Translations under genes and position numbers: made by a program
Shown: in pieces, positions 1,892 to 35,649 of the stretch
Layout: each line of letters begins with the position of its first letter
Position numbering within the stretch: position 1 is the first letter of the stretch
NCBI GenBank assembly: GCA_017546245.1
Contig: JAFYXI010000071.1
Coordinates: forward strand, 1 to 64,000
Reading direction: 5' to 3'
DNA: 64,000 nt
Source: Clostridia bacterium
Lineage (GTDB): Bacteria; Bacillota; Clostridia; UBA1381; UBA9506
Notes under the pieces: model-generated
Seen by the model: the letters and a program-made list of their open reading frames with translations, nothing else
The model's database searches: none
Told to the model about the DNA's origin: nothing

Positions 1892-3427
1892 TTATTCATC
1901 ACCTAAAGCTTCTTTAGCCGAAACCAAAACCTTATTTTCGTAGCAGGTAAACATTGCATCTACCTTTTCTTTATTAAGCTTTGGTGTAAACAGGCTTACT
2001 GCCGGAACAATAATAAGTCCTGCAATCATTGCAACTGCACCGCAGTTAATCGGCGACTGTAAAACAACCGGAAAGCTCGGTCTTATAAGCATATTAAGCA
2101 CCATAATTCCTGCACCGAAAATAAAGCAAGCCCAAACAGATGCTTTAGATACCTTTTTGCTGTATAATCCAAAGAGGAACGGAGCCAGGAACGCACCGGC
2201 TAAAGCTCCCCACGAAATACCCATCATATCTGCTATGTAGCCCAGCTTATCTTTATTGATTGCAATAAATGCAGAAACCGCAACAAACACTACAATGAGT
2301 ATTCTCATAATGAGTACCTGTTTTTTCTCATCCATATTTTTAATAACGTGACCTTTTAACAAGTCAAGCGTTAAGGTTGAACTTGATGTAAGTACCAATG
2401 ACGAAAGAGTTGACATTGATGCAGAAAGCACCAAAACAATAACTACACCGATTAAAACATCGGGCAGATTTTCAAGCATTGCAGGGATAATTGCATCATA
2501 TCCGCCAACAGGCATTCCTGCTTCTGTAACTCCCAGACCTGCGATTCTTCCGAATCCGCCCAAGAAGTAACAGCCGCCTGCTACAATAACAGCAAAGATA
2601 GTAGAAATTATTGTTCCCTTTGCAATGTTTTTCTCGCTTTTAATCGCGTAGAACTTTTGAACCATCTGCGGTAGTCCCCATGTGCCAAGCGATGTTAAAA
2701 TTACAACACACGCTAAATTAAACGGGTCAGGACCGAAAAATGATGCATATGCACCCGGAATTTCGTGCTCTACCTTAGCAAGTTCGGTAAGCGAACCCAT
2801 AAATCCGCCGTGACCGTTTAACACCGCAACTATAACTGCAACGATACCGCCAAGCATTATAATTCCCTGAATAAAGTCGTTTATTGCAGTCGCCATATAT
2901 CCACCGGCTATAACGTAAATTCCGGTAAGAACTGCCATAATAATAACACAAACATTATACGAAACACCCGGAAAAGCCATTTCGAACAAACGGGATAATC
3001 CGTTGTATAAAGATGCTGTGTAAGGAATTAAGAATATGAAAACTATAAGTGATGCAACAATTTTTAAAGCGTTGCTGTCAAAACGTTTTCCAAAGTATTC
3101 GGGCATTGTTGCCGTTTTTAAGTGCTGTGTCTGAAGTCTTGTTCTTCTGCCGAGTATTACCCAAGCCAAAAGCGAACCGATAAATGCGTTGCCAAGACCA
3201 ATCCAGGTTGATGCAACACCGAATTTCCAACCAAACTGACCTGCATATCCTACAAAAATAACTGCCGAAAAGTATGATGTACCATACGCAAAAGCGGTAA
3301 GCCACGGACCAACACTTCTACCGCCCAACACAAAGCCCGAAACATCGGTCGCATGTTTTCTGCAATAGAAGCCAACACCCAACATTACTGCGAAAAAGAT
3401 TACCAACATTACAATTTTTACTGCCAT
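1892..3427 (-). CDS. Sodium:solute symporter (SSS family)
   Basis: About 511 residues with 13 or so hydrophobic segments, typical of the SSS/PutP-PanF family that imports a solute with sodium across the cytoplasmic membrane. Family-like stretches include the GGRSVGPWLTAFAYGTSYFS region near the N-terminus and the GGYMATAINDFIQG segment in the middle. The start at 3427 is chosen because AAGG lies 9 bases upstream; the in-frame ATG at 3436 abuts that ribosome binding site. It follows a T-box leader, so its expression should depend on the charging of one tRNA. The solute is not known; an amino acid or an aromatic or organic acid used by the downstream CoA ligase would fit. Confidence 0.88.
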   Translation of the reverse strand: MAVKIVMLVIFFAVMLGVGFYCRKHATDVSGFVLGGRSVGPWLTAFAYGTSYFSAVIFVGYAGQFGWKFGVASTWIGLGNAFIGSLLAWVILGRRTRLQTQHLKTATMPEYFGKRFDSNALKIVASLIVFIFLIPYTASLYNGLSRLFEMAFPGVSYNVCVIIMAVLTGIYVIAGGYMATAINDFIQGIIMLGGIVAVIVAVLNGHGGFMGSLTELAKVEHEIPGAYASFFGPDPFNLACVVILTSLGTWGLPQMVQKFYAIKSEKNIAKGTIISTIFAVIVAGGCYFLGGFGRIAGLGVTEAGMPVGGYDAIIPAMLENLPDVLIGVVIVLVLSASMSTLSSLVLTSSSTLTLDLLKGHVIKNMDEKKQVLIMRILIVVFVAVSAFIAINKDKLGYIADMMGISWGALAGAFLAPFLFGLYSKKVSKASVWACFIFGAGIMVLNMLIRPSFPVVLQSPINCGAVAMIAGLIIVPAVSLFTPKLNKEKVDAMFTCYENKVLVSAKEALGDE

Positions 3428-3483
3428 TTTAACCATCCTTCCATTTAATAATTTTTTGTCGATTCAGAAGACGGAAGGCAATA

Positions 3484-3516
3484 AAAAAGCCGTCCTCTAA
3501 ATAAATCAGAGGACGG
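3484..3516 (-). terminator. T-box terminator hairpin
   Basis: Read on the minus strand, a perfect 9-bp stem CCGTCCTCT/AGAGGACGG with a 9-base loop is followed by a run of T. It directly follows the T-box sequence, and its 5' arm overlaps the segment that would pair in the antiterminator. Confidence 0.85.
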
Positions 3517-3762
3517 AAAAAATCCGTGTTACCACCTCAGTTTACAAGCTCCTCACGGAGACCTGCCTCGACAAGTAGCATAAGATACTGAAACTCTTAT
3601 AGTACTCTGCGCTGTTACGGGCACACCCGTCAAAGGTTACTGTTATTTCTCCTTTGCAGCTCCCGGACTGTATTCGGACTATTTCAAGACCCCGGCTCGC
3701 ACCACCCGCCGTTTCTCTGTGCTCCATTCATAGCCTTACTTGTTTCCGTTCCTAGCCTTTAC
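3484..3762 (-). promoter_or_regulatory. T-box leader (tRNA-sensing riboswitch)
   Basis: The minus strand between promoter and symporter has the features of a T-box leader: a Stem I region with an AGAGA element and a GGTGGTGCGAGCC distal-loop-like segment (about 3725-3690), the T-box core AGGTGGTAACACGG at 3536-3523, and then an intrinsic terminator. A candidate specifier is UAC (tyrosine) in the context CCGAAUACAGUCC around 3675; this register is a guess because the AUA in the nearby GAAAUAG could also be argued. The established mechanism is that uncharged cognate tRNA stabilises the antiterminator and allows transcription of the genes downstream. The controlled genes are the symporter and probably the CoA ligase. 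Confidence 0.85.
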
Positions 3763-3807: not shown

Positions 3808-3827
3808 TCGATAGATGTAAAATTTAA
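3808..3827. repeat. Left flanking direct repeat of the prophage (attL or target duplication)
   Basis: The 20-bp sequence tcgatagatgtaaaatttaa is repeated exactly at 35630-35649. Identity stops at 3807 (G versus A) and 3828 (A versus T). The copies flank all phage genes, so they mark the insertion. If the element proper starts at 3822, the target duplication is 13 bp (3809-3821); if insertion was site-specific, the whole 20 bp is the core. Confidence 0.85.
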
Positions 3828-3849
3828 ATTGTATAATTAAATGCGAAAA
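3822..3849 (+). repeat. Left terminal inverted repeat
   Basis: Matches the reverse complement of 35603-35630 at 21 of 28 positions. Both outer tips read ATnTAAAT and both inner halves read TAAATGCGAAAA. A TATAAT hexamer (3832-3837) lies inside it, facing the phage. Bases 3840-3849 also form the left arm of the hairpin at 3840-3872. Confidence 0.75.
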
Positions 3850-3880
3850 GATTTTACACGTCTTTTCGCATTATTTTTTT
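3840..3880 (+). terminator. Intrinsic terminator at the left end of the prophage
   Basis: A perfect 12-bp stem (AATGCGAAAAGA at 3840-3851, TCTTTTCGCATT at 3861-3872) with a 9-base loop is followed by ATTTTTTT. It would stop transcription entering from the left flank, and perhaps attenuate transcription from a junction promoter. Its arms repeat the inner motif of the inverted repeats, so it is also a second possible transposase-binding site in opposite orientation. Confidence 0.8.
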
Positions 3881-3905
3881 ATATTTTTTGGAGGTGTGAA
3901 ACACA

Positions 3906-4172
3906 ATGGCAAGAAAAAAATACAAGCTTTTAACCTATGAGGACAGAAAGAAGCTTGAAGAAATGTACTTGAACAACGAACGCCCTTCGGACATCGCCGA
4001 CAAATTGGGCGTTCACACGGCTACAATTTACAAAGAATTGCAGCGCGGCGACACGGGAACGCTTGACAAGAACTTGCGTTCCGAATATAGCGCCGAACTT
4101 GCACAGCGCAAAACAACCGAAAGTTTAAAGAACCGCGGCCGCAACCTTGAAGAAGCGGCAGCCAATGCGTAA
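3906..4172 (+). CDS. Small HTH protein related to the IS30 transposase DNA-binding domain
   Basis: An 88-residue basic protein that is almost entirely one helix-turn-helix domain (HTH_38 type) of the kind at the N-terminus of IS30 transposases. It aligns over most of its length with the first 80 residues of the phage's own transposase at 34540: compare LTYEDRKKLEEMY...DIADKLGVHTATIYKELQRG with FTRDDRLKLEAYI...EIAGLLHKHISSIYREIGRG. It has no catalytic domain. RBS GGAGGTG lies 9 bases before the ATG. As the first gene inside the left end it is well placed to bind the ends or the early promoter. A regulator or repressor role is inferred by analogy with phage Mu, whose repressor shares a DNA-binding domain with its transposase. 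Confidence 0.75.
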   Translation: MARKKYKLLTYEDRKKLEEMYLNNERPSDIADKLGVHTATIYKELQRGDTGTLDKNLRSEYSAELAQRKTTESLKNRGRNLEEAAANA

Positions 4173-4183
4173 GGGGTGATATT

Positions 4184-4285
4184 GTGAAAAAGCTTCCTTG
4201 TGGCTTGTCGCAAAAGCTTCCGCGCTTCTGCAAAGGCCGAAAATGCATAGATTGCCCGTTGAATAATGCAAATAGAAAGGATTGA
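4184..4285 (+). CDS. Small four-cysteine protein
   Basis: A 33-residue basic ORF starting with GTG after a strong AAGGGGTG site. It has four cysteines (residues 6, 16, 21, 24), the last two pairs as CIDC, which suggests a small zinc-binding knuckle. It fills the gap between the HTH gene and the next ORF in the same direction. Its function is unknown. Confidence is limited by its size. Confidence 0.5.
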   Translation: MKKLPCGLSQKLPRFCKGRKCIDCPLNNANRKD

Positions 4286-4292
4286 TTTTCTA

Positions 4293-4598
4293 ATGGTAAG
4301 CAAATATCTTTCGGACAAAAAAGAACTTCCCGCAATAGTTATTCCGCTTTCGGTAGCGGGGCAAGTAAAAAAACAAACCCTTGAAGACTACACACAAAAA
4401 GCAAACCTTGTTACAAAGGAATTAAGCGACCTTCTTAAAAAAATAGACAAAGAAATTATCGGCGCTTCCTATGTGGTTACGGATTGCAGAACTGAATTTG
4501 TACGCGTTCACTACAAGGGCGGCAGCTACTACGACAAAAATGTTACGGGCTGCAGCTTGGGTGTTATTGCGATAGATGTTATTGAAAGAATTATTTAG
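4293..4598 (+). CDS. Hypothetical phage early protein
   Basis: About 101 residues from the ATG at 4293, with AAAGGA 12 bases upstream; an alternative ATG at 4266 has no ribosome binding site. A helical middle (residues ~25-55) is followed by a compact segment rich in beta-branched residues containing CRTEFVRVHYKGGSYYDKNVTG. I do not recognise the family. It is in the rightward early operon, 14 bp before the next gene, so a role in early phage functions is likely but unspecified. Confidence 0.65.
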   Translation: MVSKYLSDKKELPAIVIPLSVAGQVKKQTLEDYTQKANLVTKELSDLLKKIDKEIIGASYVVTDCRTEFVRVHYKGGSYYDKNVTGCSLGVIAIDVIERII

Positions 4599-4612
4599 GA
4601 GGAGCGCAGACG

Positions 4613-5008
4613 ATGAACAAAGAACGCTACATTATTAACGAATGCGAAATAGAACTTCTTGAACGCTTCGAAGGCACAACGGCACAGAAGAAAGACCCGT
4701 ACAGATACGACAGTTTCGATAAAACTACCCTTGCCGCGTTTTGTCATATGAAAGACCGCAGCAATGATATTTTCTTCAAGAGGTATCAAGCCGCGCGGGA
4801 GGTTATCGACCTTATCGCAAAACAAGTGGGGATTGACCCGGAAAACACGGGCTTTTGGCTCTACGCCCCCGACCTTGACGGCACAACCGCTATTGTTAGA
4901 CGTATGCAAGATTGGTTCAGCCGCAGCGGTGAGAAGGCGCAACTAAAAAGGCGGCTTCAAGAATTGGAACAAGAAAATCTACTTTTACGCTCACTAATTC
5001 AAAAATAG
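4613..5008 (+). CDS. Hypothetical phage early protein with C-terminal coiled coil
   Basis: 131 residues, charged and mostly helical. The last 25 residues (about 107-131) carry a leucine heptad pattern (LKRRLQELEQENLLLRSLI) that should form a short coiled coil, so the protein probably oligomerises. No domain family is recognised. RBS GGAGG lies before the ATG, and the gene is spaced 14 and 12 bp from its neighbours in an apparent early operon. Confidence 0.7.
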   Translation: MNKERYIINECEIELLERFEGTTAQKKDPYRYDSFDKTTLAAFCHMKDRSNDIFFKRYQAAREVIDLIAKQVGIDPENTGFWLYAPDLDGTTAIVRRMQDWFSRSGEKAQLKRRLQELEQENLLLRSLIQK

Positions 5009-5020
5009 GAGGAATAAAAA

Positions 5021-5470
5021 ATGTTATCAATTAAAAATCAAAAGTACATATTTGAAAGGCTGCTGAAAGGCAATACCGTTTCTTATGAAAAGTTAGACGA
5101 CAAACGCTTCGTATTTACCGACGGCGTAAGGCTGTTTATTTTCTCGGAAGAACAAATCAAATTTGATATTACCAAATGCGCCCCGTCGGATAAATTAAAG
5201 AATGTTTTAAGGGACGCTTTGAACGGCCGCGAATTAAGACCGACCGAAGAAATAAGAGCGGACGAACGCAAAAGCAAATCTTATAGACGCTTACTTTCCC
5301 CCGACGGCGTATGTTCTATATGGATTGAAGACGAATTCGTCAAAGATTACAAAACTTGCTTATTTATCGGCGAAGGCCGCAAAAAGCACGTTTGCGTATT
5401 AGACGATTACGGCGACTTACTCGCGGCAATTATGCCTTGCGACATCGACAGAGAGGACGGCGACGAATGA
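5021..5470 (+). CDS. Hypothetical phage early protein
   Basis: 149 residues, acidic C-terminus, no membrane segment, no family recognised. AGGAGG precedes the ATG. The stop overlaps the next start as ATGA (5467-5470), which indicates translational coupling within the early operon. Confidence 0.7.
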   Translation: MLSIKNQKYIFERLLKGNTVSYEKLDDKRFVFTDGVRLFIFSEEQIKFDITKCAPSDKLKNVLRDALNGRELRPTEEIRADERKSKSYRRLLSPDGVCSIWIEDEFVKDYKTCLFIGEGRKKHVCVLDDYGDLLAAIMPCDIDREDGDE

Positions 5471-5814
5471 TGTTTAAAACATATCCCGGAAGCAAAATCA
5501 AAAGAATATTTGAAAAGGAACTTGAAGAACTGAACACAGAACACGAAATTTTACAAGTGGAACATATCCCCGAAGCGATACGCGAAAATTACGCTTGTTT
5601 AGTTGAGTATATACCCCGAAATGAATACAAAATCGAAACGGACTACAAAAAACTTGAAAAAGATTACAATGCGCTGTTATCACATCATAACAAATTATGC
5701 GACGCGCTTTACACTTCTTTGGTTTACGATGAAGACGGCAACCCAACCGCCGCAATAGCAGACGAAGCCAAATTAAATGAAGCGATAGACCTTGCAGCGG
5801 ATTTCTTCGGTTAA
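5467..5814 (+). CDS. Hypothetical phage early protein, helical
   Basis: About 115 residues, starting at the ATG that overlaps the upstream stop as ATGA. The open frame reaches further left (5356), but that upstream part is an arginine-rich shadow of the preceding gene. The central part (residues ~55-75) is strongly helical with a KKLEKDYNALLSHHNKL stretch; the C-terminus is acidic. No family is recognised. Confidence 0.65.
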   Translation: MMFKTYPGSKIKRIFEKELEELNTEHEILQVEHIPEAIRENYACLVEYIPRNEYKIETDYKKLEKDYNALLSHHNKLCDALYTSLVYDEDGNPTAAIADEAKLNEAIDLAADFFG

Positions 5815-5826
5815 GCAGGGGGCGTT

Positions 5827-5955
5827 ATGGGAATTCTTTGTCATAATTACAAATGCGACCATATAAGCAAAAGGAAAACGAAATGGCAAACAAAAGACGG
5901 GAAGCCGCTTTATAGATGTACGCTTCAAGAAACAATTATAAGCGATTGCCAATAA
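5827..5955 (+). CDS. Small cysteine-containing phage protein
   Basis: A 42-residue ORF with RBS GGGGG and ATG at 5827. Four cysteines (5, 10, 28, 41) and several histidine and lysine residues suggest a small zinc-stabilised fold. No known family is recognised. It fills the gap between two better-supported early genes in the same direction. Confidence 0.5.
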   Translation: MGILCHNYKCDHISKRKTKWQTKDGKPLYRCTLQETIISDCQ

Positions 5956-6008
5956 TTCAATTTGTGTTAATTGCACAGTAGAAAAACACTTCGCGGAGGA
6001 ATGAGAAA

Positions 6009-6221
6009 ATAACAACAGAAGAAGCAATCGCAGCTTTTAAAGCGCAAGTCCCGGTCGTTTCCCGAAATGTCGGTTTTGATATTGAATATTTGAAAATATC
6101 GGCCCTTATATATCGGCTTAACGACGAAGGCAAAATGCAACTTACGCTTGAACTATTAGACAAATGCAAACACAGCGTAACAATTACAACCCCTTCAATG
6201 GTTAAATTAAAGGAGGATTGA
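6009..6221 (+). CDS. Small phage protein with an apparent ATA start codon
   Basis: A 70-residue coding frame begins after the ribosome binding site GGAGGA (5995-6000), but the codon at the right spacing (8 bases) is ATA at 6009. The ATG abutting the site (6001) hits a stop after three codons. The product (start MTTEEAIAAFKAQVPVV if ATA initiates) resembles, from memory, a widespread family of short Firmicutes phage proteins that begin with a similar EEAIAAFK sequence and contain an ISALIYR-like and an LLDK-like segment. Function unknown. Either ATA is used as a start or the start codon was mutated from ATG. Confidence 0.6.
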   Translation: MTTEEAIAAFKAQVPVVSRNVGFDIEYLKISALIYRLNDEGKMQLTLELLDKCKHSVTITTPSMVKLKED

Positions 6222-6224
6222 CAA

Positions 6225-6503
6225 ATGGAAAAAGAAAATATCCGGCGTTTTCTTCGTGATGAAGCGGAATTAACGGGCGTTCTGTTTGACGCATACCGCG
6301 AAAGTGAACGCGGCGAAGTATGCGTAACGCAAATCAATGCGCGGCGCGCAAAGATATTCAAGGATATGTGCATAAATTTTCTAAATAAAAACGGAATAAA
6401 AGATTTCGCGATAACAAAAGACGGAATTCAATTCTACGGCCATTATAAAATTACATTTCGTTCGGAAAATGCTAATCTTAACGGCTACTACAAAATTTTA
6501 TGA
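6225..6503 (+). CDS. Hypothetical phage early protein
   Basis: 92 residues, ATG at 6225 preceded by GGAGG. Mixed charged helical N-terminus, then a segment FAITKDGIQFYGHYKITF that looks like beta-strand. No recognised domain. It is 3 bp after the ATA-start gene and 14 bp before the next gene. Confidence 0.65.
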   Translation: MEKENIRRFLRDEAELTGVLFDAYRESERGEVCVTQINARRAKIFKDMCINFLNKNGIKDFAITKDGIQFYGHYKITFRSENANLNGYYKIL

Positions 6504-6517
6504 AAGGATTTTGAACA

Positions 6518-6859
6518 ATGGATAAGAACGTACATTCATATTTTAAAGGTTTTACAGACGGAGCGGCACAGAGAGCGGCAGAAATGCCCGCAGAAAGAAA
6601 AAGCATTACAAATGTTTCCTTATATATAAAGGAAGAAAACAAAGACCACGAACGCCAAATGCGCCGTGAAGCGAAATTACGCGCGCGTGCGGGTTGGACT
6701 TTCCTTGCGGGCCTTTGTTGGGGTTTAACGCCTTATTTCTTCCATATAGCACACGCGGCCCGCGGAAGTAATGTTCCGGGCGGCGAAATCGTAATCCCCC
6801 TTATTCCCTTCTTTTGTGCCTTATTACATAGTGCAGAAAATAAAAGAACAAAAAAATAA
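6518..6859 (+). CDS. Small membrane-associated phage protein
   Basis: 113 residues. The first 55 are charged and soluble; residues ~60-77 (WTFLAGLCWGLTPYFFHIA) and ~88-103 (GEIVIPLIPFFCALLH) are hydrophobic and could span the membrane twice as a hairpin. No known family. It is the last gene before the 426-bp non-coding region and probably ends the first early operon. Confidence 0.6.
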   Translation: MDKNVHSYFKGFTDGAAQRAAEMPAERKSITNVSLYIKEENKDHERQMRREAKLRARAGWTFLAGLCWGLTPYFFHIAHAARGSNVPGGEIVIPLIPFFCALLHSAENKRTKK

Positions 6860-7285
6860 CTGCTTCCGCAGGAAACGAAAACAGTTAAACAATACAACGG
6901 CTTTTCGCCGTCGCTTATCAACATATTTATTATATCACGGCAGCGGCGAAAAGTCAATAACAAATACACACGGCCGCGGGCTGTTTTCGGCCTTGTATTT
7001 GATATTATCTTATCAACCACAAAGGAATACCAAAAGAGAATAAAGACCCCCGAAGCCCTACCCGAAAAAGAAAAAAGAAAAAATATTATTTTTTATATAT
7101 GGGAAAATGACGGATAGAAAGGGGGTGCGCCGTTGGGGTGTGGTAAGGGTGTGTAAACTCAAAGAGTTTTCCACGCTTTCCATATCCCAACAAGCAGGGG
7201 GAAGGAAAGGTGTCATTTTCCTTTACTTTTTGCTTTCCTTCCCCCTTCTCTTGGGTTATTGACTTTTTGAAAGTTAGGTGAAACA
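6860..7285. other. Hairpin-rich non-coding region before the Rep gene, candidate replication origin
   Basis: No gene is supported in this 426-bp stretch. It contains two perfect long inverted repeats: 6901-6910 with 6944-6953 (CTTTTCGCCG arms) and 7197-7209 with 7233-7245 (GGGGGAAGGAAAG arms, 23-base loop). A smaller hairpin lies at about 7156-7168. The position directly upstream of an HUH Rep gene makes it a candidate nick site (double-strand origin), though HUH Reps can also nick inside their own gene. The second hairpin could alternatively be a terminator or attenuator, although it is not followed by a T run. Confidence 0.5.
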
Positions 7286-8059
7286 ATGATACGCGAAAAA
7301 AATATAATATCGGGCGCGATGTATGAAGCGGAGTTTTACCCGGTATTCCCCAACGGCCGACGTATGCCGCAGAGAAAACCGAAAAGCCGTCCGACATCAA
7401 AGGAACAAGCGAACCTTAACGACAAGAACGCCCGAAAAAAAATCGTCCGTTTGGTAAATGCAAACTTTGGTAAAGGTGATATTGTTATACACGGCACATA
7501 TTGCGACAGCGAAATGCCTTCTTCCGAAGAACAATGCCGCAAGGATATTCAAAACTACATACGCAGGATAAAGCGGTACAGAGAAAAGCAGGGCTTGCCC
7601 GAAATGAAATACATATACGTCATTGAAGCGAAGGTAAGTAAAAAAACGGGCCTTGTTCGGTATCATTTTCATATGATTACTAACGCAATGGATAGAGATA
7701 CAGCCGAAGAAATGTGGCCTTTTGGTGATTGGACGAACGCTGACAGATTACAACCCAACGAAAAAGGGTGCGAAGCTTTGGCGAAATATCTTGTTAAGAA
7801 GCCCGAAGGCGGCAAACGTTGGGCGCAATCCCGAAATTTAGATAAGCCAAAAGAACCAAAACCCAAAGACGGTAAAATTTCAAAGCGCCATTTACAGCGC
7901 CTTGCAACTGAACACATAGACGACGCGCCTTATTGGGAAAAGCGTTACAAGGGTTATCGCTTTATCGAAGCGGCCGCGCGATACAATGAATATAACGGGC
8001 ATTGGTATTTGTCCGTCGTGATGTTCAAGAAAAACGAAACGGAGGTAATGCGAAAATGA
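7286..8059 (+). CDS. HUH-type Rep (replication initiator)
   Basis: 257 residues. The central HUH motif is H127-F-H129 in VRYHFHM. The motif III tyrosine is Y168 in YLVK, matching the YxxK pattern of rolling-circle Reps. Proteins of this type nick one DNA strand and stay bound to the 5' end through the tyrosine, which starts rolling-circle-like replication. The N-terminal 55 residues are basic and probably bind DNA. RBS AGGTGA precedes the ATG. It follows a hairpin-rich non-coding region and its stop overlaps the next ATG as ATGA. A tailed phage with such a Rep instead of the usual helicase-loader set recalls the gpA strategy of P2. Confidence 0.78.
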   Translation: MIREKNIISGAMYEAEFYPVFPNGRRMPQRKPKSRPTSKEQANLNDKNARKKIVRLVNANFGKGDIVIHGTYCDSEMPSSEEQCRKDIQNYIRRIKRYREKQGLPEMKYIYVIEAKVSKKTGLVRYHFHMITNAMDRDTAEEMWPFGDWTNADRLQPNEKGCEALAKYLVKKPEGGKRWAQSRNLDKPKEPKPKDGKISKRHLQRLATEHIDDAPYWEKRYKGYRFIEAAARYNEYNGHWYLSVVMFKKNETEVMRK

Positions 8060-8568
8060 ATATTGAAAAATCGGTGCTTATTAGTATTCAGCCCAAATGG
8101 TGCAAGCTTATAGCATTAGGCAAAAAGACGGTTGAGGTAAGAAAAACAAAACCGAAGCTTGGAACGCCTTTTAAGTGTTATATCTATTGCACGCTATCGG
8201 GAAGCAATGAGTTTTTCAAAGAAGATTGTAAAGGCGATATTGCCGAATGGAACAGAAGTGAAATGGCATTAAAAAAAGGCAAAGTTATAGGCGAATTTGT
8301 GTGCGATTATATGACGGGTTTTAAGGCGATGGGCGAAGTGCAAGCGATATACGGCGAAACGCAGGAAACTTGTTTGTCAAACGATGAAATCATAAAGTAT
8401 GCGGAAGGAAAACGGCTTTATTATTGGCATATATCCGACCTTGTAATTTACGATAATCCGAAGGAATTAAACGAATTCGTCGTGGAACGTTACCCGTGTT
8501 TGGCAAAATTAAAAAGACCGCCGCAAAGTTGGTGTTATGTCGAAGAAGTGGAAGGCGGTGTATTATGA
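8056..8568 (+). CDS. ASCH/PUA-like domain protein
   Basis: 170 residues from the ATG overlapping the Rep stop. The N-terminal SVLISIQPKWCKLIALGKKTVEVRKTKP is characteristic of the ASCH family of PUA-related folds, with the substrate-binding region GKKTVEVRK. Such phage proteins are thought to bind RNA or modified nucleotides; the precise role is unknown. Translationally coupled to both neighbours (ATGA overlaps). Confidence 0.75.
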   Translation: MNIEKSVLISIQPKWCKLIALGKKTVEVRKTKPKLGTPFKCYIYCTLSGSNEFFKEDCKGDIAEWNRSEMALKKGKVIGEFVCDYMTGFKAMGEVQAIYGETQETCLSNDEIIKYAEGKRLYYWHISDLVIYDNPKELNEFVVERYPCLAKLKRPPQSWCYVEEVEGGVL

Positions 8569-8945
8569 GTTATAAACCATACGTTCACGAAAACGTCGAA
8601 CAAACTTGCCTTTTTAGGTGGGCGGCTTATGAACAAGGCAAATACCCCGAATTGAATTTGCTTTATCATATCCCGAACGGCGGCAGCCGCAACAAATACG
8701 AAGCGGCCAACTTGAAGCGGCAGGGCGTAAAAGCGGGCGTACCCGATTTATGTTTGCCCGTCGCCCGCGGAAAATACCACGGCTTGTATATCGAAATGAA
8801 AGCAGGAAAAAACACGCCTTCCAACCTTCAAAAAGATTGGTTGAAGGCACTTAACGAACAAGGCTTCCTTGCTGTTGTCTGCTATGGTTGGGAAAAGGCT
8901 TCGGAAGTCTTAATACAATACCTTGAAGGGAGGATTGACGAATGA
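8565..8945 (+). CDS. VRR-NUC domain nuclease
   Basis: 126 residues from the overlapping ATG at 8565; the frame extends upstream but only as a shadow. It has the VRR-NUC (PD-(D/E)xK superfamily) pattern: an N-terminal E (NVEQ), the core GVKAGVPDLCLPVARGKYHGLYIEMKAG, in which the D of VPD and the ExK of EMK supply the metal site, and a Q downstream (LQKDW). Phage VRR-NUC proteins are structure-specific DNA nucleases, used in replication or recombination. It lies in the replication module behind Rep. Confidence 0.85.
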   Translation: MSYKPYVHENVEQTCLFRWAAYEQGKYPELNLLYHIPNGGSRNKYEAANLKRQGVKAGVPDLCLPVARGKYHGLYIEMKAGKNTPSNLQKDWLKALNEQGFLAVVCYGWEKASEVLIQYLEGRIDE

Positions 8946-9856
8946 ACTATATTGCATTTTTATTTACGGCCGCTTCAATCGTGGGAACACTTGCAAACAG
9001 TTTTCAAAAAAAGTGGTGCTTTTATATATGGCTTTGCACTAATTCTTTTTGGTGTATATATAACACCATTAACGCGCAGTATGCGCAAGCCTTGCTTTAT
9101 GTCTTTAATTTGGCAACGTGTATTATAGGCCTTTACAAATGGCGAAGGCCCGTTCAAATAGCGGCCGACCTTTCAAACGGACACGATAAAGGCTGTATTG
9201 TGGAATATCGAAAAACAAAAAACGGTATAGATGTTTTGTCGTGCAAATATGACGACGGAGCGGCAACCGACACAGAAAACAACGCTACATTGCGCGGCGA
9301 CGATTTAAAAGAATTGGTTTTGCCGCCTTTGCGCCGCTGTAAGCATTGCGGGAAAACGGGTGTATATTACGGTGAAAATTTCGGCGGCGGTGCTTCTATG
9401 CGGGCAGAAGCTATTATAAAACATCATAACGCGGACGGCGAAGAAATTTTCTTATGCCAAAATTGCCATTTAAAAGCACACGAAATAAAACCACACGCAG
9501 CCGACGGCTTCCGCGCTGACGTTGCAATAATAGACGAACCAAAGGAAGCCGAAAAACCTTCGGAGGAAATCGAAGACCCATATACAAGAATGTCAAAGGC
9601 TTTTGACGTTTTTAAAACGGCGGTTATAGATGCAGTACGCCCAATGCTCGAAGCGCATATCGACGCATTTTTCAAGTTTCCAAAAACATTTCGCGGCGGC
9701 GTTTATGAATTCTTGAAATGGCAAGACAACGCCACAGACCCGCGCTTGCTACATAGAGCATATAACGCGAAACGATACAGAACGCGCAAAAAGAACCTTG
9801 CGCGCCTACATCGTGAATATAAAAAATATATCAAGAAAGGCGGCGGCAGAAAGTGA
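8942..9856 (+). CDS. Membrane/zinc-ribbon fusion protein (PnuC-like N-terminus)
   Basis: 304 residues. Residues 1-70 contain two to three hydrophobic segments that look like the short PnuC-like membrane proteins of phages (FQKKWCFYIWLCTNSFWCIYN...ALLYVFNLATCIIGLYKW). The middle has a two-pair cysteine site, CKHC (~residues 132-135) and CQNC (~173-176), suggesting a zinc ribbon. The C-terminus (~250-304) is very basic. I read this as a fusion of two modules often encoded separately; the function is not known. Start ATG overlaps the nuclease stop as ATGA. Confidence 0.6.
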   Translation: MNYIAFLFTAASIVGTLANSFQKKWCFYIWLCTNSFWCIYNTINAQYAQALLYVFNLATCIIGLYKWRRPVQIAADLSNGHDKGCIVEYRKTKNGIDVLSCKYDDGAATDTENNATLRGDDLKELVLPPLRRCKHCGKTGVYYGENFGGGASMRAEAIIKHHNADGEEIFLCQNCHLKAHEIKPHAADGFRADVAIIDEPKEAEKPSEEIEDPYTRMSKAFDVFKTAVIDAVRPMLEAHIDAFFKFPKTFRGGVYEFLKWQDNATDPRLLHRAYNAKRYRTRKKNLARLHREYKKYIKKGGGRK

Positions 9857-10329
9857 AGAAAGATTTTACAAGAGATTATGCAACAGAAGCTTTTCGGCTT
9901 TATGCTGCTATGGGTAAGCCGTCGTATGAAGAAGCCACAAAGCAGATATACGAAGCGGCCTTGAATGATTGCGAATTCAAAGACCCCGAAATCGCCAATA
10001 TATCAGCCGAAGCAGCGGTAAACAATGCAACGCCGCTTTTGCTTGATATTCTCGCGGTCGAAAAAACTATTGACATTTTGGAGCGGGGCAACAAAACACA
10101 TATTGCCCGCGCTATATCCGACGTTTACTTCGTGCAGCCCGAACAGCCATTGCGCCGCGGCGACATTACCGCGCGCGTGCGTCGCTATTCCCTTACGGCT
10201 TTTGCAAGTGAACGCAATGTTTATTTATGGCTTAAAGAAGCCCGCTTATTATTCGCGGCCGTCCGTGGCCTACGTATAGCGGAAGCCGACGCAAATAAAT
10301 ATAAAGTTTGCAGTAGTAGCGTATTGTAA
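9853..10329 (+). CDS. Probable phage transcriptional regulator or packaging-related protein
   Basis: 158 residues starting at GTG that overlaps the upstream stop (GTGA). It is alpha-helical, and the region RRYSLTAFASERNVYLWLKEARLLFAAVRGL resembles the C-terminal helix-turn-helix of late regulators of the ArpU/RinA kind. Such a gene is usual just before the HNH/terminase block of Firmicutes siphophages. The assignment rests on position and general appearance and is tentative. Confidence 0.45.
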   Translation: MKKDFTRDYATEAFRLYAAMGKPSYEEATKQIYEAALNDCEFKDPEIANISAEAAVNNATPLLLDILAVEKTIDILERGNKTHIARAISDVYFVQPEQPLRRGDITARVRRYSLTAFASERNVYLWLKEARLLFAAVRGLRIAEADANKYKVCSSSVL

Positions 10330-10333
10330 TGTG

Positions 10334-10387
10334 TTATAATAAACACGATGAAAGTATATAAGCCTTGCGCCTTCGGGTGCAGGGCTT
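10334..10387 (+). promoter_or_regulatory. Candidate late promoter element and hairpin before the packaging genes
   Basis: An extended -10 element TGTTATAAT ends at 10340, without a clear -35, consistent with an activator-dependent promoter. About 20 bp on, a hairpin at 10361-10387 (AGCCTTGC...GCAGGGCT arms, TTC loop) is followed by TTTT. They mark the break between the early and late operons. Confidence 0.4.
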
Positions 10388-10460
10388 TTGTATTTTGTGG
10401 GGTAACACGTTGCATATTGCAAGGGGCGGGAGCGGCAACGAATAACAAAGGGTTAGTGCT

Positions 10461-10787
10461 ATGAAAGAATATGCAAAAAGTTTTTACTTGTCGAAGGCTT
10501 GGCGCAAGACGCGCGACGCATACGCTACAAGTCAAAACGGTTTATGCGAACGCTGCAAGCAAGCGGGCGACATAGTACATCATAAACAATACATAACGCC
10601 AAAGAACATAAGCGACCCGCTTATTACTCTTGATTGGTCGAACCTTGAATTGCTTTGTCAAGATTGCCACAACAAAGAGCATATGAAGAAGCAGAATTCG
10701 CGTTATGTGTTTGACGAAAACGGAAACATACTCCCCCCGGGGTGCGAAAAAAATAAACGCCCACGGGAACCGATGAAGGGGAGTTAA
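10461..10787 (+). CDS. HNH endonuclease
   Basis: 108 residues. It has CERC...CQDC zinc pairs and the ββα-metal core DIVHHKQYITP...NLELLCQDCHNKEH, where the paired histidines and the final H of NKEH are the HNH residues. HNH proteins encoded directly before the terminase genes take part in cos-type DNA packaging together with the terminase. RBS AAGGG precedes the ATG by 8 bases. The C-terminal tail is basic and proline-rich. Confidence 0.88.
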   Translation: MKEYAKSFYLSKAWRKTRDAYATSQNGLCERCKQAGDIVHHKQYITPKNISDPLITLDWSNLELLCQDCHNKEHMKKQNSRYVFDENGNILPPGCEKNKRPREPMKGS

Positions 10788-10845
10788 AAAAAACTCCGCG
10801 GGCGCGCACGCGTGAGGGGGGGTCAACGAAAGGCGGTGAATTTAT

Positions 10846-11244
10846 TTGGCAACTTCAAAGAATACCGAAATTTTGGTAAATGATAGCGTGATTAAGAAAG
10901 AAAAACGCAAACTTATGAAGATTTTTGAAAAGGCTGTAAAAGAAGTCGGCGACGACGGCAAAAAGCGCTTTACCGACAAAGGAATTATGCTTGAAGGGCT
11001 TATCGACGAAGCGGCTTTCGTCCGTTCCGTTCTGCTTGAAGCAAAACGCCTTATAAAGACCGACGGAATAGAAACAACCACCATAAACGGCAGCCAAAAA
11101 TACAAGAACGCAACACCCGCAACAAAGATTTATGCGGAATATTTGCGAACTTATACGCCGCTTGTAAATTCACTTCTTGAACATATCCCCGAAAAGAAAG
11201 AAAAGAAGCAAGCAAGGCTTGCAGCGCTGCTGATTGACGACTAA
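10846..11244 (+). CDS. Terminase small subunit
   Basis: 132 residues, initiated at TTG (10846) with AGGCGGTG upstream. Mostly helical and basic at the N-terminus; the pattern (a helical domain, TKIYAEYLRTYTPLVNSLLEHI near the end) fits the P27-type small terminase subunit, which recognises phage DNA for packaging. The position between HNH and the large subunit supports this. Its 3' end overlaps the start of the large subunit by 11 bp. Confidence 0.75.
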   Translation: MATSKNTEILVNDSVIKKEKRKLMKIFEKAVKEVGDDGKKRFTDKGIMLEGLIDEAAFVRSVLLEAKRLIKTDGIETTTINGSQKYKNATPATKIYAEYLRTYTPLVNSLLEHIPEKKEKKQARLAALLIDD

Positions 11245-12895
11245 AAATTATATTTACGAATACCGCGACGCAATCGAAACGGGGCGCGTTACCGTCGGCG
11301 TGTGGATAAAGCTTATTTTTGATATTTTAATACGCGGAATTGAAAATAAGACTTGGTTTTACGACGATAAAAAGGCAAAAAAAGCAATAAAATTCATCGA
11401 AAATTTTTGCCACCACAGCGAAGGCCGCAACGATTTATTAAAGCTTGAATTATGGCAAAAAGCCATTGTTTCGGCAATATTCGGAATAGTAGATTGCGAC
11501 GGCTTCCGACAATTCCGCGAAGTGTTTATAATTGTCGCCCGTAAGAACGGAAAAACCCTTTTTGCGGCTGCAATTATTGCATATATGGCATATCTTGACG
11601 GCGAATACGGCGCGAAAATATATTGCCTTGCGCCGAAGCTTGAACAAGCCGACCTTGTATATGACGCATTTTACCAAATTGTGCAAGCTGATGAAGAACT
11701 CGGCGACCCCGACTTCACAAAGAAGCGTCGTTCCGACATCTACATACAGCAACTTAATACATCAATAAAACGCCTTGCCTTCAATTCCAAAAAGTCGGAC
11801 GGCTTCAACCCGCATTTAACAGTATGCGACGAAATGGAAGCTTGGCCGGGTGAACAAGGCTTGAAGCAATACGAAGTTATGAAATCCGCGCTTGGCGCAA
11901 GAAAACAGCCGCTTATATTATCAATAGCAACAGCGGGTTACGTCAACGACGGAATTTATGACGAACTTATGAAACGTTCGACCGCTTTTCTAAAAGGCGG
12001 CGACGAAATGCGCTTGCTTCCCTTCTTGTATATCATTGACGATGTGCAGAAATGGGACGACATCGAAGAATTAAAAAAATCAAATCCGAATATGGGCGTT
12101 TCTGTTTCCGAAGATTTTTACATTGAGGAAATAAAAGTGGCCCGCAATTCCCTTTCTAAAAAAGCGGAATTTATGACGAAATATTGTAACATCAAGCAAA
12201 ATTCTTCGGTTGCGTGGCTTGATTTTCAAGACGTGGACGACGTTTCGGGCGAAAAATACACCCTTGACGATTTTAAGGGCTGTTATTGCGTCGGAGGTAT
12301 CGACCTTTCACAAACAACCGACCTTACGGCCGCTTCAATCGTTGTTGAAAAATCAAAAAAACTATATGTATTTACACAATTCTTTATGCCGCAGGAGCGG
12401 TTCGACAAAGCTTGCGAAGAAGACAACGTACCTTACAGCATTTACCAAAAGCAAGGCTTGTTGACTTTATCGGGCGAACATTACGTTGATTACAAAGACG
12501 TGTTTAATTGGTTCGTTACGCTTATAAAACACTACAAAATACGGCCTTTGAAGGTCGGTTATGACAGATATTCGGCGCAATACTTAATACAAGAAATGGC
12601 GCAATCGGGCTTCCATATGGACGACGTTTTTCAAGGTACAAACCTTTCGCCGCTTTTGAAGGAATTTGAAGGAATTATCAAAGACCGAAAAATCAATATC
12701 GGCGAAAATAATTTGTTAAAGTCGCATTTGCTGAATGTTGCTGTTCAAATCAACAGCAGCGACGGCAGAATGAAGCCCGTTAAAATTGAACCGCGTATGC
12801 GTATAGACGGTTTTGTTTCTGTTATAGACGCTATGACGGTACGAAGCAAGTATTTTTCCGAAATCGGAAAACAGCTTGAAAATAACGCAGCGTAA
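11234..12895 (+). CDS. Terminase large subunit
   Basis: 553 residues, start TTG at 11234 overlapping the small subunit. The ATPase has a deviant Walker A, VARKNGKT (~101-108), and a Walker B with catalytic glutamate, LTVCDE (~195-200). The C-terminal RNase H-like nuclease begins at GGIDLSQTTD (D357, D363). It cuts phage concatemers and pumps DNA into proheads. Length and motif order are typical of the family, and nothing looks broken. Confidence 0.95.
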   Translation: MTTKNYIYEYRDAIETGRVTVGVWIKLIFDILIRGIENKTWFYDDKKAKKAIKFIENFCHHSEGRNDLLKLELWQKAIVSAIFGIVDCDGFRQFREVFIIVARKNGKTLFAAAIIAYMAYLDGEYGAKIYCLAPKLEQADLVYDAFYQIVQADEELGDPDFTKKRRSDIYIQQLNTSIKRLAFNSKKSDGFNPHLTVCDEMEAWPGEQGLKQYEVMKSALGARKQPLILSIATAGYVNDGIYDELMKRSTAFLKGGDEMRLLPFLYIIDDVQKWDDIEELKKSNPNMGVSVSEDFYIEEIKVARNSLSKKAEFMTKYCNIKQNSSVAWLDFQDVDDVSGEKYTLDDFKGCYCVGGIDLSQTTDLTAASIVVEKSKKLYVFTQFFMPQERFDKACEEDNVPYSIYQKQGLLTLSGEHYVDYKDVFNWFVTLIKHYKIRPLKVGYDRYSAQYLIQEMAQSGFHMDDVFQGTNLSPLLKEFEGIIKDRKINIGENNLLKSHLLNVAVQINSSDGRMKPVKIEPRMRIDGFVSVIDAMTVRSKYFSEIGKQLENNAA

Positions 12896-29832: not shown

Positions 29833-29842
29833 AACGGGGGTT

Positions 29843-29861
29843 TGGGGGCGGGCAGCCCCCA
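29843..29861 (+). promoter_or_regulatory. Hairpin downstream of the VR
   Basis: Perfect 7-bp stem TGGGGGC/GCCCCCA with a 5-base loop, 20 bp after the VR and 10 bp after the target gene stop. A hairpin or cruciform at this place is known to promote target recognition in retroelements such as that of Bordetella phage BPP-1. It has no T-run, so it is not a typical terminator. Confidence 0.7.
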
Positions 29862-29879
29862 TATAGGGATTTAACACGC

Positions 29880-29996
29880 AAACGCGGCGAATGTCGGCGG
29901 CAATTGGAACAATGGGGCTAATTGCGGGCCGTGTTATTGGAATTGCAACAATGCGCCTTCGAATACGAATATCAATCGCCGCGCGCGTCTATCTTA
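29880..29996 (+). repeat. Template repeat (TR) of the retroelement
   Basis: Non-coding template, 58 bp downstream of the VR and 111 bp upstream of the RT start. In the VR reading register it contains twelve AAC/AAT codons at the positions that vary. Adenine-specific error-prone copying by the RT makes cDNA that replaces the VR. Confidence 0.95.
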
Positions 29997-30107
29997 ATAC
30001 ATTCATCGCGTGTTATTTCCCTTGCCGCTTGGCAAAAATACATCGCTACGGGCGGGGTTAGTAAGAAATTGAAAGCCTTGCAGATAATTAAGAAAGAAGC
30101 TGAACCG

Positions 30108-31631: not shown

Positions 31632-32099
31632 ATGGAAAAAATCGCGCATAAAATGAATACATTGTGGGGCGCAGCCGTTGCGCTGTTTGCTTCCACATTC
31701 GGGGAATTTTGGTTCTTGTTTGTGGCCTTCTTCGTCCTTAATGTAGTTGACTACATAACGGGAGTTGCAAAAGCCCGCTTTTCAAAAAAGGAAAATTCAA
31801 ACAAAGGCTTAAAAGGTATTATAAAAAAGGTTGGATATTGGGTTGTAATTGATATTGCCTTCTTTATCGCCTTATCCTTTGAAGAAATGGGAACAAATAT
31901 CGGAATAAACCTTGCGTTCGTCGAAATGCTCGGTTGGTTTACTCTTGCAACCTTTATTATTAACGAAATTCGTTCAATCCTTGAAAACCTTGTTATTTTG
32001 GGCGTGGACGTTCCCGTTTTTCTTACAAAGGGTTTAGAGGTTGCAGCGGCCGCGGTACAATCTAAAACAGAAAATATAACGGAGGACAAAAAAGAATGA
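31632..32099 (+). CDS. Phage holin
   Basis: 155 residues with three to four hydrophobic segments (LWGAAVALFASTFGEFWFLFVAFFVLNVVDYITGV, VGYWVVIDIAFFIALSF, LAFVEMLGWFTLATFIINE). The NVVDYITGVAKA motif is typical of the phage_holin_4/toxin secretion holin family. It makes the membrane lesion that lets the amidase reach the wall. RBS GGAGG; overlaps the amidase start (ATGA). Confidence 0.92.
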   Translation: MEKIAHKMNTLWGAAVALFASTFGEFWFLFVAFFVLNVVDYITGVAKARFSKKENSNKGLKGIIKKVGYWVVIDIAFFIALSFEEMGTNIGINLAFVEMLGWFTLATFIINEIRSILENLVILGVDVPVFLTKGLEVAAAAVQSKTENITEDKKE

Positions 32100-33832: not shown

Positions 33833-33861
33833 TTGACATAATCGTACGACTATGTTATAAT
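33833..33861 (+). promoter_or_regulatory. Strong promoter with a palindrome in its spacer
   Basis: TTGACA (33833-33838), 17-bp spacer, TATAAT (33856-33861): a full consensus promoter for the small genes at 33895-34481. The spacer holds the 8-bp palindrome TCGTACGA (33842-33849), a possible repressor operator. Confidence 0.8.
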
Positions 33862-33894: not shown

Positions 33895-34026
33895 ATGCAG
33901 AACATAACAAAAGCCCTGCAAGATTTGGCAAAAGCTGTTGAAAGTAACGACACCGTCCAAAATGTCAAAGTTACAATCACATTAAAAAAGCCGAAATCTA
34001 ACAAGGCTAAACCAAATAGCAAGTAA
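33895..34026 (+). CDS. Small basic phage protein
   Basis: 43 residues, MQNITKALQDLAKAVESND... with a lysine-rich end. A strong promoter and AAGGAGA ribosome binding site precede it, so it is likely to be well expressed. No family recognised. Confidence 0.6.
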   Translation: MQNITKALQDLAKAVESNDTVQNVKVTITLKKPKSNKAKPNSK

Positions 34027-34539: not shown

Positions 34540-35571
34540 ATGCGTAATTTCAAACATTTTACACGCGACGACAGATTAAAGCTTGAAGCGTATATAAGAG
34601 CAGGAAAAACACCGCGCGAAATTGCGGGGCTTCTTCATAAGCATATTTCTTCTATATATAGGGAAATCGGCCGCGGCCGCTATGAGCATAAAAACAGCGA
34701 TTGGACGTTTGAAGAAAGATACAGCCCGGACATCGCCGAAGAAAAATACCGCGCCAACCTTGCCGCCAAAGGCGCAGACCTTAAAATCGGCGCAGATTTG
34801 GAATTCTCGCAGTATATAGAAGATAGAATAATAAACGACAAATATTCCCCCGCTGCTGTTTTGGGTGAAATCAAAGCGGAAGGGCTTGTTTTTGATACAA
34901 CTATTTCCGTAAGCACTTTATACAGCTATATTGAAAAAGGGATATTCCTTCACTTAACAAATAAAAATTTGCCCGTAAAAGGCAAAAAGAAAAAGCGCCA
35001 CTATAACAGAGTTAAGCAGAAGCGCCGCAGCGCGGGCGAAAGTATCGAAAACAGACCCGCGGAAATATTAACGCGTGAAGAATTCGGCCATTGGGAAATG
35101 GATTGCGTCGAAGGTGCAAAGAGAAGCCGTAAAACCCTTCTTATGTTATCGGAGCGGAAGACGCGCGACGAAATTGTTATACCTATAAAAGCAAAGACAG
35201 CCGAAAACGTCGTTGCAGCGCTTGACGCTTTGGAAAAGAATTGGCGAAATCTTTTCCCGCTTGTATTCAAATCAATTACAGTTGATAACGGTTCGGAGTT
35301 TTCCGACGTTGAAGGTATGGAAAAATCTATTTTCGGAGGAAAGCGCACACAATTTTATTATTGCCACGCTTACAGTAGTTGGGAACGTGGAACAAATGAG
35401 AATATAAACAAAATGGCGCGCCGCCATTATCCGAAGGGAACTAATTTTGAAAAGTACCCGGACGAAGAATTATTAAAGCTTAATGAATGGATAAACAATT
35501 ACCCGCGCGGGATATTTGGTTATCGCTGTTCGGCTGAATTATTCAACAATGAAATAGCGGCGCTTTTGTAG
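34540..35571 (+). CDS. IS30-family DDE transposase (apparent phage recombinase)
   Basis: 343 residues. The N-terminal HTH (~5-45) has LKLEAYIRAGKTPREIAGLLHKHISSIYREIGRG, followed by a second DNA-binding region and the DDE core: D188 (GHWEMDCVEG), D249 (ITVDNGSEFSD) and E287 in the IS30 signature GTNEN-INKMARRHYPKGTNF. The length is typical for IS30 (about 320-390). It has RBS AAAGGAGGAAT. It sits 32 bp from the right inverted repeat. No separate IS ends flank it on its own: the only matched repeats are at the prophage ends, so it appears to belong to the phage. It would mobilise the whole 31.8-kb unit. Confidence 0.9.
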   Translation: MRNFKHFTRDDRLKLEAYIRAGKTPREIAGLLHKHISSIYREIGRGRYEHKNSDWTFEERYSPDIAEEKYRANLAAKGADLKIGADLEFSQYIEDRIINDKYSPAAVLGEIKAEGLVFDTTISVSTLYSYIEKGIFLHLTNKNLPVKGKKKKRHYNRVKQKRRSAGESIENRPAEILTREEFGHWEMDCVEGAKRSRKTLLMLSERKTRDEIVIPIKAKTAENVVAALDALEKNWRNLFPLVFKSITVDNGSEFSDVEGMEKSIFGGKRTQFYYCHAYSSWERGTNENINKMARRHYPKGTNFEKYPDEELLKLNEWINNYPRGIFGYRCSAELFNNEIAALL

Positions 35572-35602: not shown

Positions 35603-35630
35603 TTTTCGCATTTACTCTTGACATTTACAT
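35603..35630 (-). repeat. Right terminal inverted repeat
   Basis: Matches the left repeat (3822-3849) in reverse complement at 21 of 28 positions. Contains TTGACA (35618-35623) pointing outward. See the prophage entry and the junction-promoter finding. Confidence 0.75.
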
Positions 35631-35649
35631 CGATAGATGTAAAATTTAA
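35630..35649. repeat. Right flanking direct repeat of the prophage
   Basis: Exact 20-bp copy of 3808-3827. It covers the last stop codon of the MFS gene (35646-35648 on the minus strand). The junction TTTACATC-GATA-GATGTAAA (35624-35643) is a perfect palindrome with a 4-base centre, made of phage tip plus host flank. Confidence 0.85.

What the first reader, a model, noticed from the sequence alone, without database searches (positions are those of the whole stretch)
3906..4172. Solo copy of the transposase DNA-binding domain as first phage gene
The 88-residue protein aligns with residues 1-80 of the phage's own transposase. The pair recalls Mu, where repressor and transposase share a DNA-binding fold and compete. 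No CI-like repressor is visible elsewhere, so this protein is a candidate for lysogeny control.
Basis: partly seen in the sequence, partly recalled or inferred. Interest (0 to 1): 0.7.

Follow-up and report, generated by a model that had tools for sequence, protein, structure and literature searches.

The report
Transposase-domain protein beside split phage promoter
A family of gut phages that integrate with an insertion-sequence transposase carries a promoter cut in two by integration and rejoined when the phage circularises, and the first gene behind it is an old, free-standing copy of the transposase's DNA-binding domain, so the circular or integrated state of the DNA itself may act as the lysis/lysogeny switch.

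Summary
In detail: 3906-4172(+) encodes an 88-aa free copy of the N-terminal DNA-binding domain of the prophage's IS30-type transposase (34540-35571), 31% identical, E 4e-11, with the same predicted fold. It is not a recent truncation. Solo proteins from many phages form their own clade and sit first after the joined phage ends in every joint found (32 of 32).

The context changes the interpretation. In circular relatives the right end supplies TTGACn and the left end TAnnAT, 17-18 bp apart, flanked by the transposase repeats; an intrinsic-terminator hairpin follows, then the solo gene. Integration separates the two hexamers and makes 15-bp target duplications, so most prophage left ends have no -35. 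The early operon has no other strong promoter.

The Mu-like reading (shared domain, competition at ends) is plausible, but a Mu-c/CI-type maintenance repressor is unlikely, because the gene is switched on by excision and not in the lysogen. Best model: a junction promoter drives the early operon in the circle; the solo protein binds the end repeats there, feeds back on the promoter and competes with transposase. The promoter architecture is well supported; the protein's role is inferred. It is a new variant of IS circle-junction promoters and OrfA-like regulators, used here by tailed phages.

The parts
3808..3822 (+). left copy of 15-bp direct repeat TCGATAGATGTAAAA (target duplication)
   Evidence: five other prophages have different 15(-16)-bp repeats
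3823..3837 (+). left phage end TTTAAATTG + -10 hexamer TATAAT (3832-3837) of the split junction promoter
3838..3850 (+). left inverted repeat TAAATGCGAAAAG, predicted transposase/solo-protein site; overlaps predicted +1
3840..3880 (+). intrinsic-terminator hairpin (13-bp stem) and T-run; 5' arm is the left inverted repeat
3890..3895 (+). ribosome-binding site GGAGGT
3906..4172 (+). solo transposase DNA-binding-domain protein (phrog_11420, HTH_38), 88 aa
7286..8059 (+). HUH replication initiator (phrog_3584, PF23343) in the early operon headed by the solo gene
33833..33861 (+). consensus promoter TTGACA-17-TATAAT of the transposase operon, palindrome TCGTACGA (33842-33849) in the spacer
33895..34026 (+). 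43-aa ORF at the head of the transposase operon; similar small ORFs at the same place in Lagaffe and nd4 (by eye)
34540..35571 (+). IS30-type DDE transposase used as integrase; D188, D249, E287 intact
35603..35614 (+). right inverted repeat TTTTCGCATTTA
35618..35629 (+). right phage end: -35 hexamer TTGACA (35618-35623) of the split junction promoter + TTTACA
35630..35644 (+). right copy of the 15-bp direct repeat

Best explanation
The solo protein is an ancient paralogue of the transposase's N-terminal DNA-binding domain and the first product of an integration-state switch. Shown by comparison: when the phage ends are joined in the circle, the right end gives a -35 and the left end a -10, about 17 bp apart, flanked by the transposase's inverted repeats; this junction promoter points into the solo gene and the early operon. 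Integration inserts the ends into a 15-bp-duplicated target and separates the hexamers, and a terminator-like hairpin stands at the left end. Inferred: the junction promoter is active in the circle, while in the lysogen the split promoter and the terminator keep the early operon off without a CI-type repressor; transcripts starting at the junction promoter begin inside the 5' arm of the terminator and so escape it; the solo protein binds the end repeats that flank and overlap the junction promoter, lowers its own operon's expression (Cro/OrfA-like feedback), and competes with transposase for the ends, tuning early lytic expression against re-integration. Lysogeny is then controlled mainly through transposase expression from its own promoter.
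For: Tnp - joint - solo order in 43 loci (30 distinct sequences) incl. Lagaffe, nd4, nd12 and Dulem 34; 32 joints with solo, none without. 28/30 joints score at least 9 of 12 with TTGACn and 15-18 bp to the -10 (17-18 bp in 27; Lagaffe also fits 16), median shuffle P 0.005. The -35 matches 5.7/6 at joints and 2.0/6 at 12 prophage left ends (P 7e-8; the joint scores were best-site picks). Different 15(-16)-bp repeats in six prophages; empty site in the same genus. Hairpin: all 6 pairs covary, 93% paired against 79% shuffled and at most 52% slid; -16.9 kcal/mol with 1 nt to the U-run in read-through RNA, -8.2 and 6 nt from predicted +1. Only weak forward promoter matches in the early operon. 34 solos form one clade apart from transposase domains; co-inherited with transposase (Mantel r 0.70). 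Same predicted fold. A recognition-helix residue follows the repeat (R in 8/9 GCGACA, 0 of about 26 GCGAAA) and changes likewise in most transposases. Precedents: IS2/IS30 junction promoters, OrfA and truncated IS30 transposase as repressors (PMC3299598, PMC9333248).
Against: No binding, transcription or mutant data. Repression, activation and a role in recombination are not separated by sequence. The helix-repeat covariation rests on about two independent switches, and the solo helix is not closer to its own transposase than to others (0.55 vs 0.54, P 0.12). This window's left end has by chance TCGATA-18-TATAAT (10/12), so some expression in this lysogen is possible. About 11 joints have a second full hairpin before the solo gene (sequences), which junction transcripts could not escape by starting late, so some relatives would need antitermination. 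Two joints (L107, L114) lack a good promoter. The window phage's own joint was not observed; its 17-bp spacer assumes a 2-nt joint, as in relatives.
Confidence: 0.55

Rival explanations
1. Accessory recombination factor: the solo protein binds the ends to help the transposase, as an excision/directionality factor or by completing the synaptic complex, and is not mainly a transcription regulator.
For: Always beside the joint and co-inherited with the transposase. IS911 OrfA stimulates circle insertion in vitro (cited in PMC3299598). An early product made only from the circle could favour or block re-integration.
Against: One phage fragment (L006) keeps the joint and solo gene with no transposase in its usual place or anywhere in the 22.6-kb record. 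A protein made only after excision cannot start excision.
Confidence: 0.2
2. Activator or antiterminator: the solo protein turns up early transcription from the joint or helps polymerase past the hairpin(s).
For: Hairpins, in some phages two in a row, lie between promoter and gene; Tn916 needs antitermination past a left-end terminator (PMC11658703). Weak profile similarity to sigma region 4.
Against: The promoter is already near consensus (5.7/6 in the -35); the left repeat overlaps the predicted start site, a position typical of repressors. Tn916's antiterminator is an RNA.
Confidence: 0.12
3. Mu c/CI-like maintenance repressor: expressed in the lysogen, it silences the early operon and the transposase.
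For: Shared domain with the transposase; no other CI/Xre-type protein found; a 10/12 promoter-like match at this window's left end.
Against: Its promoter is split in the prophage in 12/12 left ends examined, with a terminator in front. Lagaffe and nd4 also carry Xre-type regulators near the transposase. Same-strand first gene, not divergent as in Mu.
Confidence: 0.08
4. It binds other DNA, host or phage, and is only positionally linked to the ends.
For: Solo and transposase domains are only about 34% identical and the recognition helices differ in some families.
Against: Strict linkage to the joint, helix residue following the end repeat in two classes, conserved HTH core.
Confidence: 0.05

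Closest known systems
Circle-junction promoters (Pjunc) of IS2, IS911 and IS30
   Same: Abutted ends supply -35 and -10; IS2 needs exactly 17 bp, set by the joint spacer (PMC3299598); IS30 forms Pjunc (PMC9333248). Same transposase superfamily as IS30.
   Different: In IS elements Pjunc drives the transposase. Here it drives a separate domain protein and the early/replication operon of a tailed phage; the transposase lies upstream of the joint with its own promoter. Target repeats are 15 bp, against 2 bp for IS30.
OrfA of IS2/IS911; truncated 17-kDa IS30 transposase
   Same: N-terminal transposase DNA-binding domain alone, binding an end or promoter; proposed repressors in IS2 and IS30 (PMC3299598).
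   Different: Made by a separate, anciently duplicated gene, not by frameshifting or truncation of the transposase gene.
Tn916 and ICEKp1 state-dependent transcription
   Same: Element genes expressed from the circle; a left-end terminator insulates integrated Tn916 (PMC11658703, PMC13023037).
   Different: There an intact promoter at one end is brought in front of the genes; here the promoter itself is cut at the recombination point. Tyrosine recombinases, not DDE.
Phage Mu repressor c / MuA
   Same: Regulator and transposase share a DNA-binding domain and could compete for sites (from general knowledge).
   Different: Different family; not divergent; not expected in the lysogen; a HUH initiator suggests replication other than by transposition.
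Faecalibacterium phage Lagaffe (Lagaffevirus)
   Same: IS30-type transposase as integrase, joined ends in the genome record, solo protein (64% identical) right after the joint (PMC5883640).
   Different: Myovirus with Xre-type regulators near the transposase; the paper, in the passages read, does not treat the solo protein or a junction promoter.

Membership tests
IS30-family DDE transposase (phage integrase clade, phrog_4646) | N-terminal HTH domains plus RNase-H-like DDE core with conserved D, D, E | tested here: met
   D188, D249, E287 invariant in 43 relatives; rve domain E 1.7e-5 (below Pfam's cut-off); fold matches IstA and retroviral integrase cores
IS30-family DDE transposase (phage integrase clade, phrog_4646) | 2-bp target duplication as in IS30 | tested here: not met
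   15(-16)-bp repeats in six prophages; so a divergent clade and not IS30 proper
Solo DNA-binding family phrog_11420 | Profile match over the whole domain, stand-alone protein | tested here: met
   E 3.4e-35, residues 4-81 of 88
IS-type junction promoter (Pjunc) | -35 in one end, -10 in the other, about 17 bp apart only when ends are joined | tested here: met
   28/30 joints; window ends give 17 bp if the joint keeps 2 nt
IS-type junction promoter (Pjunc) | Drives transcription in the circle | not testable with these tools
   needs RNA from the excised phage
Mu-like transposable phage (c/A pair) | Replication by transposition | tested here: inconclusive
   HUH replication initiator present and joined circular genomes in relatives argue against it; replication itself not observed
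Mu-like transposable phage (c/A pair) | Repressor gene divergent from the early operon | tested here: not met
   same strand, first gene of the early operon
CI-type lysogeny repressor | Expressed in the lysogen and silences early promoters | not testable with these tools
   no expression data; left-end architecture argues against
OrfA-like transposase-domain regulator | Binds the element's end repeats and represses the promoter there | tested here: inconclusive
   helix-repeat correspondence in two classes, about two independent switches; no binding data

The most novel reading that the evidence does not exclude
A repressor-free lysogeny switch in tailed phages: transposase-mediated integration cuts the early promoter in two, so the prophage is silent by DNA topology alone, and excision rebuilds the promoter; the transposase-domain paralogue made from it then decides between re-integration and lytic growth by occupying the joint.
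Probability: 0.4. Interest if true: 0.85.

Novelty: new variant of a known kind. Interest (0 to 1): 0.7.

Why it matters
Lysogeny is usually explained by a repressor protein. Here the lytic promoter seems to be physically divided by integration, with parts borrowed from IS-element biology: junction promoter, OrfA-like domain protein, end terminator. If right, it explains how phages without a visible CI can be stable lysogens, and might relate to why Lagaffe was not induced by mitomycin C (PMC5883640). It also gives a simple test: promoter activity of joined versus separated ends. The arrangement recurs across phages of different morphology in several families of gut Clostridia and related bacteria.

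Tried and rejected
Chance similarity: rejected (13.8 SD, PHROG and tree). Recent truncation of the phage's own transposase: rejected (one solo clade; own-transposase identity 0.34 vs 0.33 for others). Site-specific attP/attB core: rejected, because the repeats differ at each site and circular joints hold no 15-bp core. Replicative Mu-like phage: unlikely (HUH initiator). Co-evolution of helix and repeat as proof of shared binding: association strong by counts but only about two independent switches, so kept as a hint. PDB fold search of the solo model: no significant match. An alignment of 14 diverse solos was too variable for a contig search; a closer set worked. No further transposase-less joint found beyond L006 (L252 flagged there is an attL by eye).

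Full report
Observation. The ORF at 3906-4172(+) is real, starts behind a GGAGGT site, and its 88-aa product matches residues 2-85 of the transposase encoded at 34540-35571(+) with 31% identity (E 4e-11; 13.8 SD above shuffles). It belongs to phrog_11420 (E 3.4e-35) and also hits the transposase family phrog_4646. The prophage runs from 3823 to 35629 (31.8 kb) and carries capsid, portal and terminase genes; its flanks are collinear in a same-genus genome without it.

What the protein is. AlphaFold2 with relatives gives three helices, a beta-hairpin and a fourth helix (H11-22, H27-34, H38-47, E49-53, E59-61, H63-76; pLDDT 85.5). The transposase model starts with the same elements (H9-20, H25-32, H36-46, E47-51, E57-61, H63-77), followed by a second helical domain and an RNase-H-like DDE core (matches IstA and retroviral integrases). 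In a maximum-likelihood tree 34 solo proteins form one clade (90/96) apart from 59 transposase domains; the three solo-labelled rows outside it are doubtful members. Solo and transposase distances correlate across phages (r 0.70), but a solo is no closer to its own transposase than to others (0.34 vs 0.33). So the pair is old and co-inherited.

Where it sits. In the circular relatives examined (Lagaffe, nd4, nd12, Dulem virus 34, IMG/VR contigs) the order is transposase, joined ends, solo gene, on one strand. Among 100 distinct transposase right ends, 32 run into a joint with a solo gene and none into a recognisable joint without one; most of the rest are prophage right ends or too short. The one converse case, L006, keeps joint and solo gene but has no transposase in a 22.6-kb fragment.

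The joint. Joints read: right repeat (for example TTTTCGCATTTACTC), TTGACn, 17-18 bp, TAnnAT, left repeat (TAAATGCGAAAA), loop, complement of the left repeat, T-run, ribosome site, solo gene. 28 of 30 distinct joints have a good sigma-70-type promoter there (median shuffle P 0.005). In prophages the -35 stays at the right end and the -10 at the left. At 12 left ends the best hexamer at 16-18 bp averages 2.0 matches to TTGACA, no better than shuffled flanks, against 5.7 at joints; the joint figure comes from a best-site search, so the contrast is somewhat flattering. This window's left end happens to have TCGATA-18-TATAAT. In the early operon (3880-11300) forward promoter-like matches reach only 9 of 12.

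Integration. Six prophages have different direct repeats of 15 bp (one perhaps 16) at their ends. Circular joints contain no such core. With the phage ends defined this way, the window's ends leave 15 bp of spacer, so a 2-nt joint gives exactly 17 bp; joints in relatives have that length. IS30 itself makes 2-bp duplications (PMC9333248), so this clade differs.

The hairpin. It covaries at all six outer pairs (93% paired against 79% in shuffles and at most 52% with slid partners). The 5' arm begins directly after the -10, so transcripts from the junction promoter should start inside it: folding from the predicted +1 drops the mean energy from -16.9 to -8.2 kcal/mol and moves the stem 6 nt from the U-run. 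Read-through from host genes would meet the full terminator. A left-end terminator insulating an integrated element is known in Tn916 (PMC11658703). A complication: about 11 joints, most of them from one part of the tree, have a second complete hairpin before the solo gene (sequences).

Does it bind the ends? One recognition-helix residue (T38 here) tracks the end repeat: R in 8 of 9 phages with GCGACA and in none of about 26 with GCGAAA, H or Y in four with GCACAG; the transposase residue follows the same classes in most cases. On the solo tree this is only about two independent switches, too few for a test. It is a hint, not proof.

Mechanism. Shown by comparison: the split promoter, the terminator-like hairpin, the conserved gene order and the shared predicted fold. 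Inferred: activity of the promoter, escape from the terminator, binding of the solo protein to the repeats, feedback repression and competition with transposase. The model predicts that the solo protein is made in the circle and not in the lysogen, which argues against a Mu-c-like maintenance role. In this phage lysogeny would be set by transposase expression, from a consensus promoter with a palindrome in its spacer (33833-33861).

Known and new. Junction promoters with a strict 17-bp spacer and OrfA-type repressors are known in IS2, and a truncated IS30 transposase is thought to repress its promoter (PMC3299598). IS30-type integration by Lagaffe was published in 2018, with direct repeats at the ends and no induction by DNA damage (PMC5883640); its genome record holds the joined ends internally. 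In the literature available here nothing was found on a junction promoter or a solo domain protein controlling a tailed phage's early operon; subscription papers were not searched.

Noticed in passing
window 27532-31175: Diversity-generating retroelement: reverse transcriptase (PF00078, 29922-31175), Rfam RT-18 RNA at 30023-30095, and a BppU-N tail protein (27532-29832) as likely target.
   Followed up: partly
window 25551-27173: Papain-family cysteine protease domain (PF00112, E 1.9e-11) in a protein between the tail genes and the retroelement target.
   Followed up: no
window 7286-8059: A dsDNA tailed phage with a HUH (REP_ORF2-G2P) replication initiator; Lagaffe also has an annotated replication initiation protein. 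Suggests rolling-circle initiation.
   Followed up: partly
window 33895-34026; L001 28819-28944; L002 26607-26720: A small protein of about 40 aa opens the transposase operon in three phages, each behind a promoter with a palindrome in its spacer; possible regulator of integration.
   Followed up: no
window 35618-35645: At attR the phage -35 and the duplicated target form TTGACA-16-TAAAAT (11/12) reading out into the host, antisense to the 3' end of the gene at 35646-36866.
   Followed up: no
L006 (IMGVR_UViG_3300038673_000048): Phage fragment with intact joint and solo gene but no transposase.
   Followed up: partly
L044, L045 (bajarodino virus 13 and 74, Inoviridae): Related IS30-type transposases in circular filamentous phages, followed by a joint-like TTGCAA...TTGTAAAT with inverted repeats, but no detectable solo protein next to it.
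   Followed up: no
window 32096-32833: Endolysin-type amidase fused to an S-layer homology domain.
   Followed up: no
window 3506-3762 (-): The prophage sits about 45-60 bp upstream of a host T-box leader (Rfam RF00230) that precedes the transporter gene at 1892-3436.
   Followed up: no
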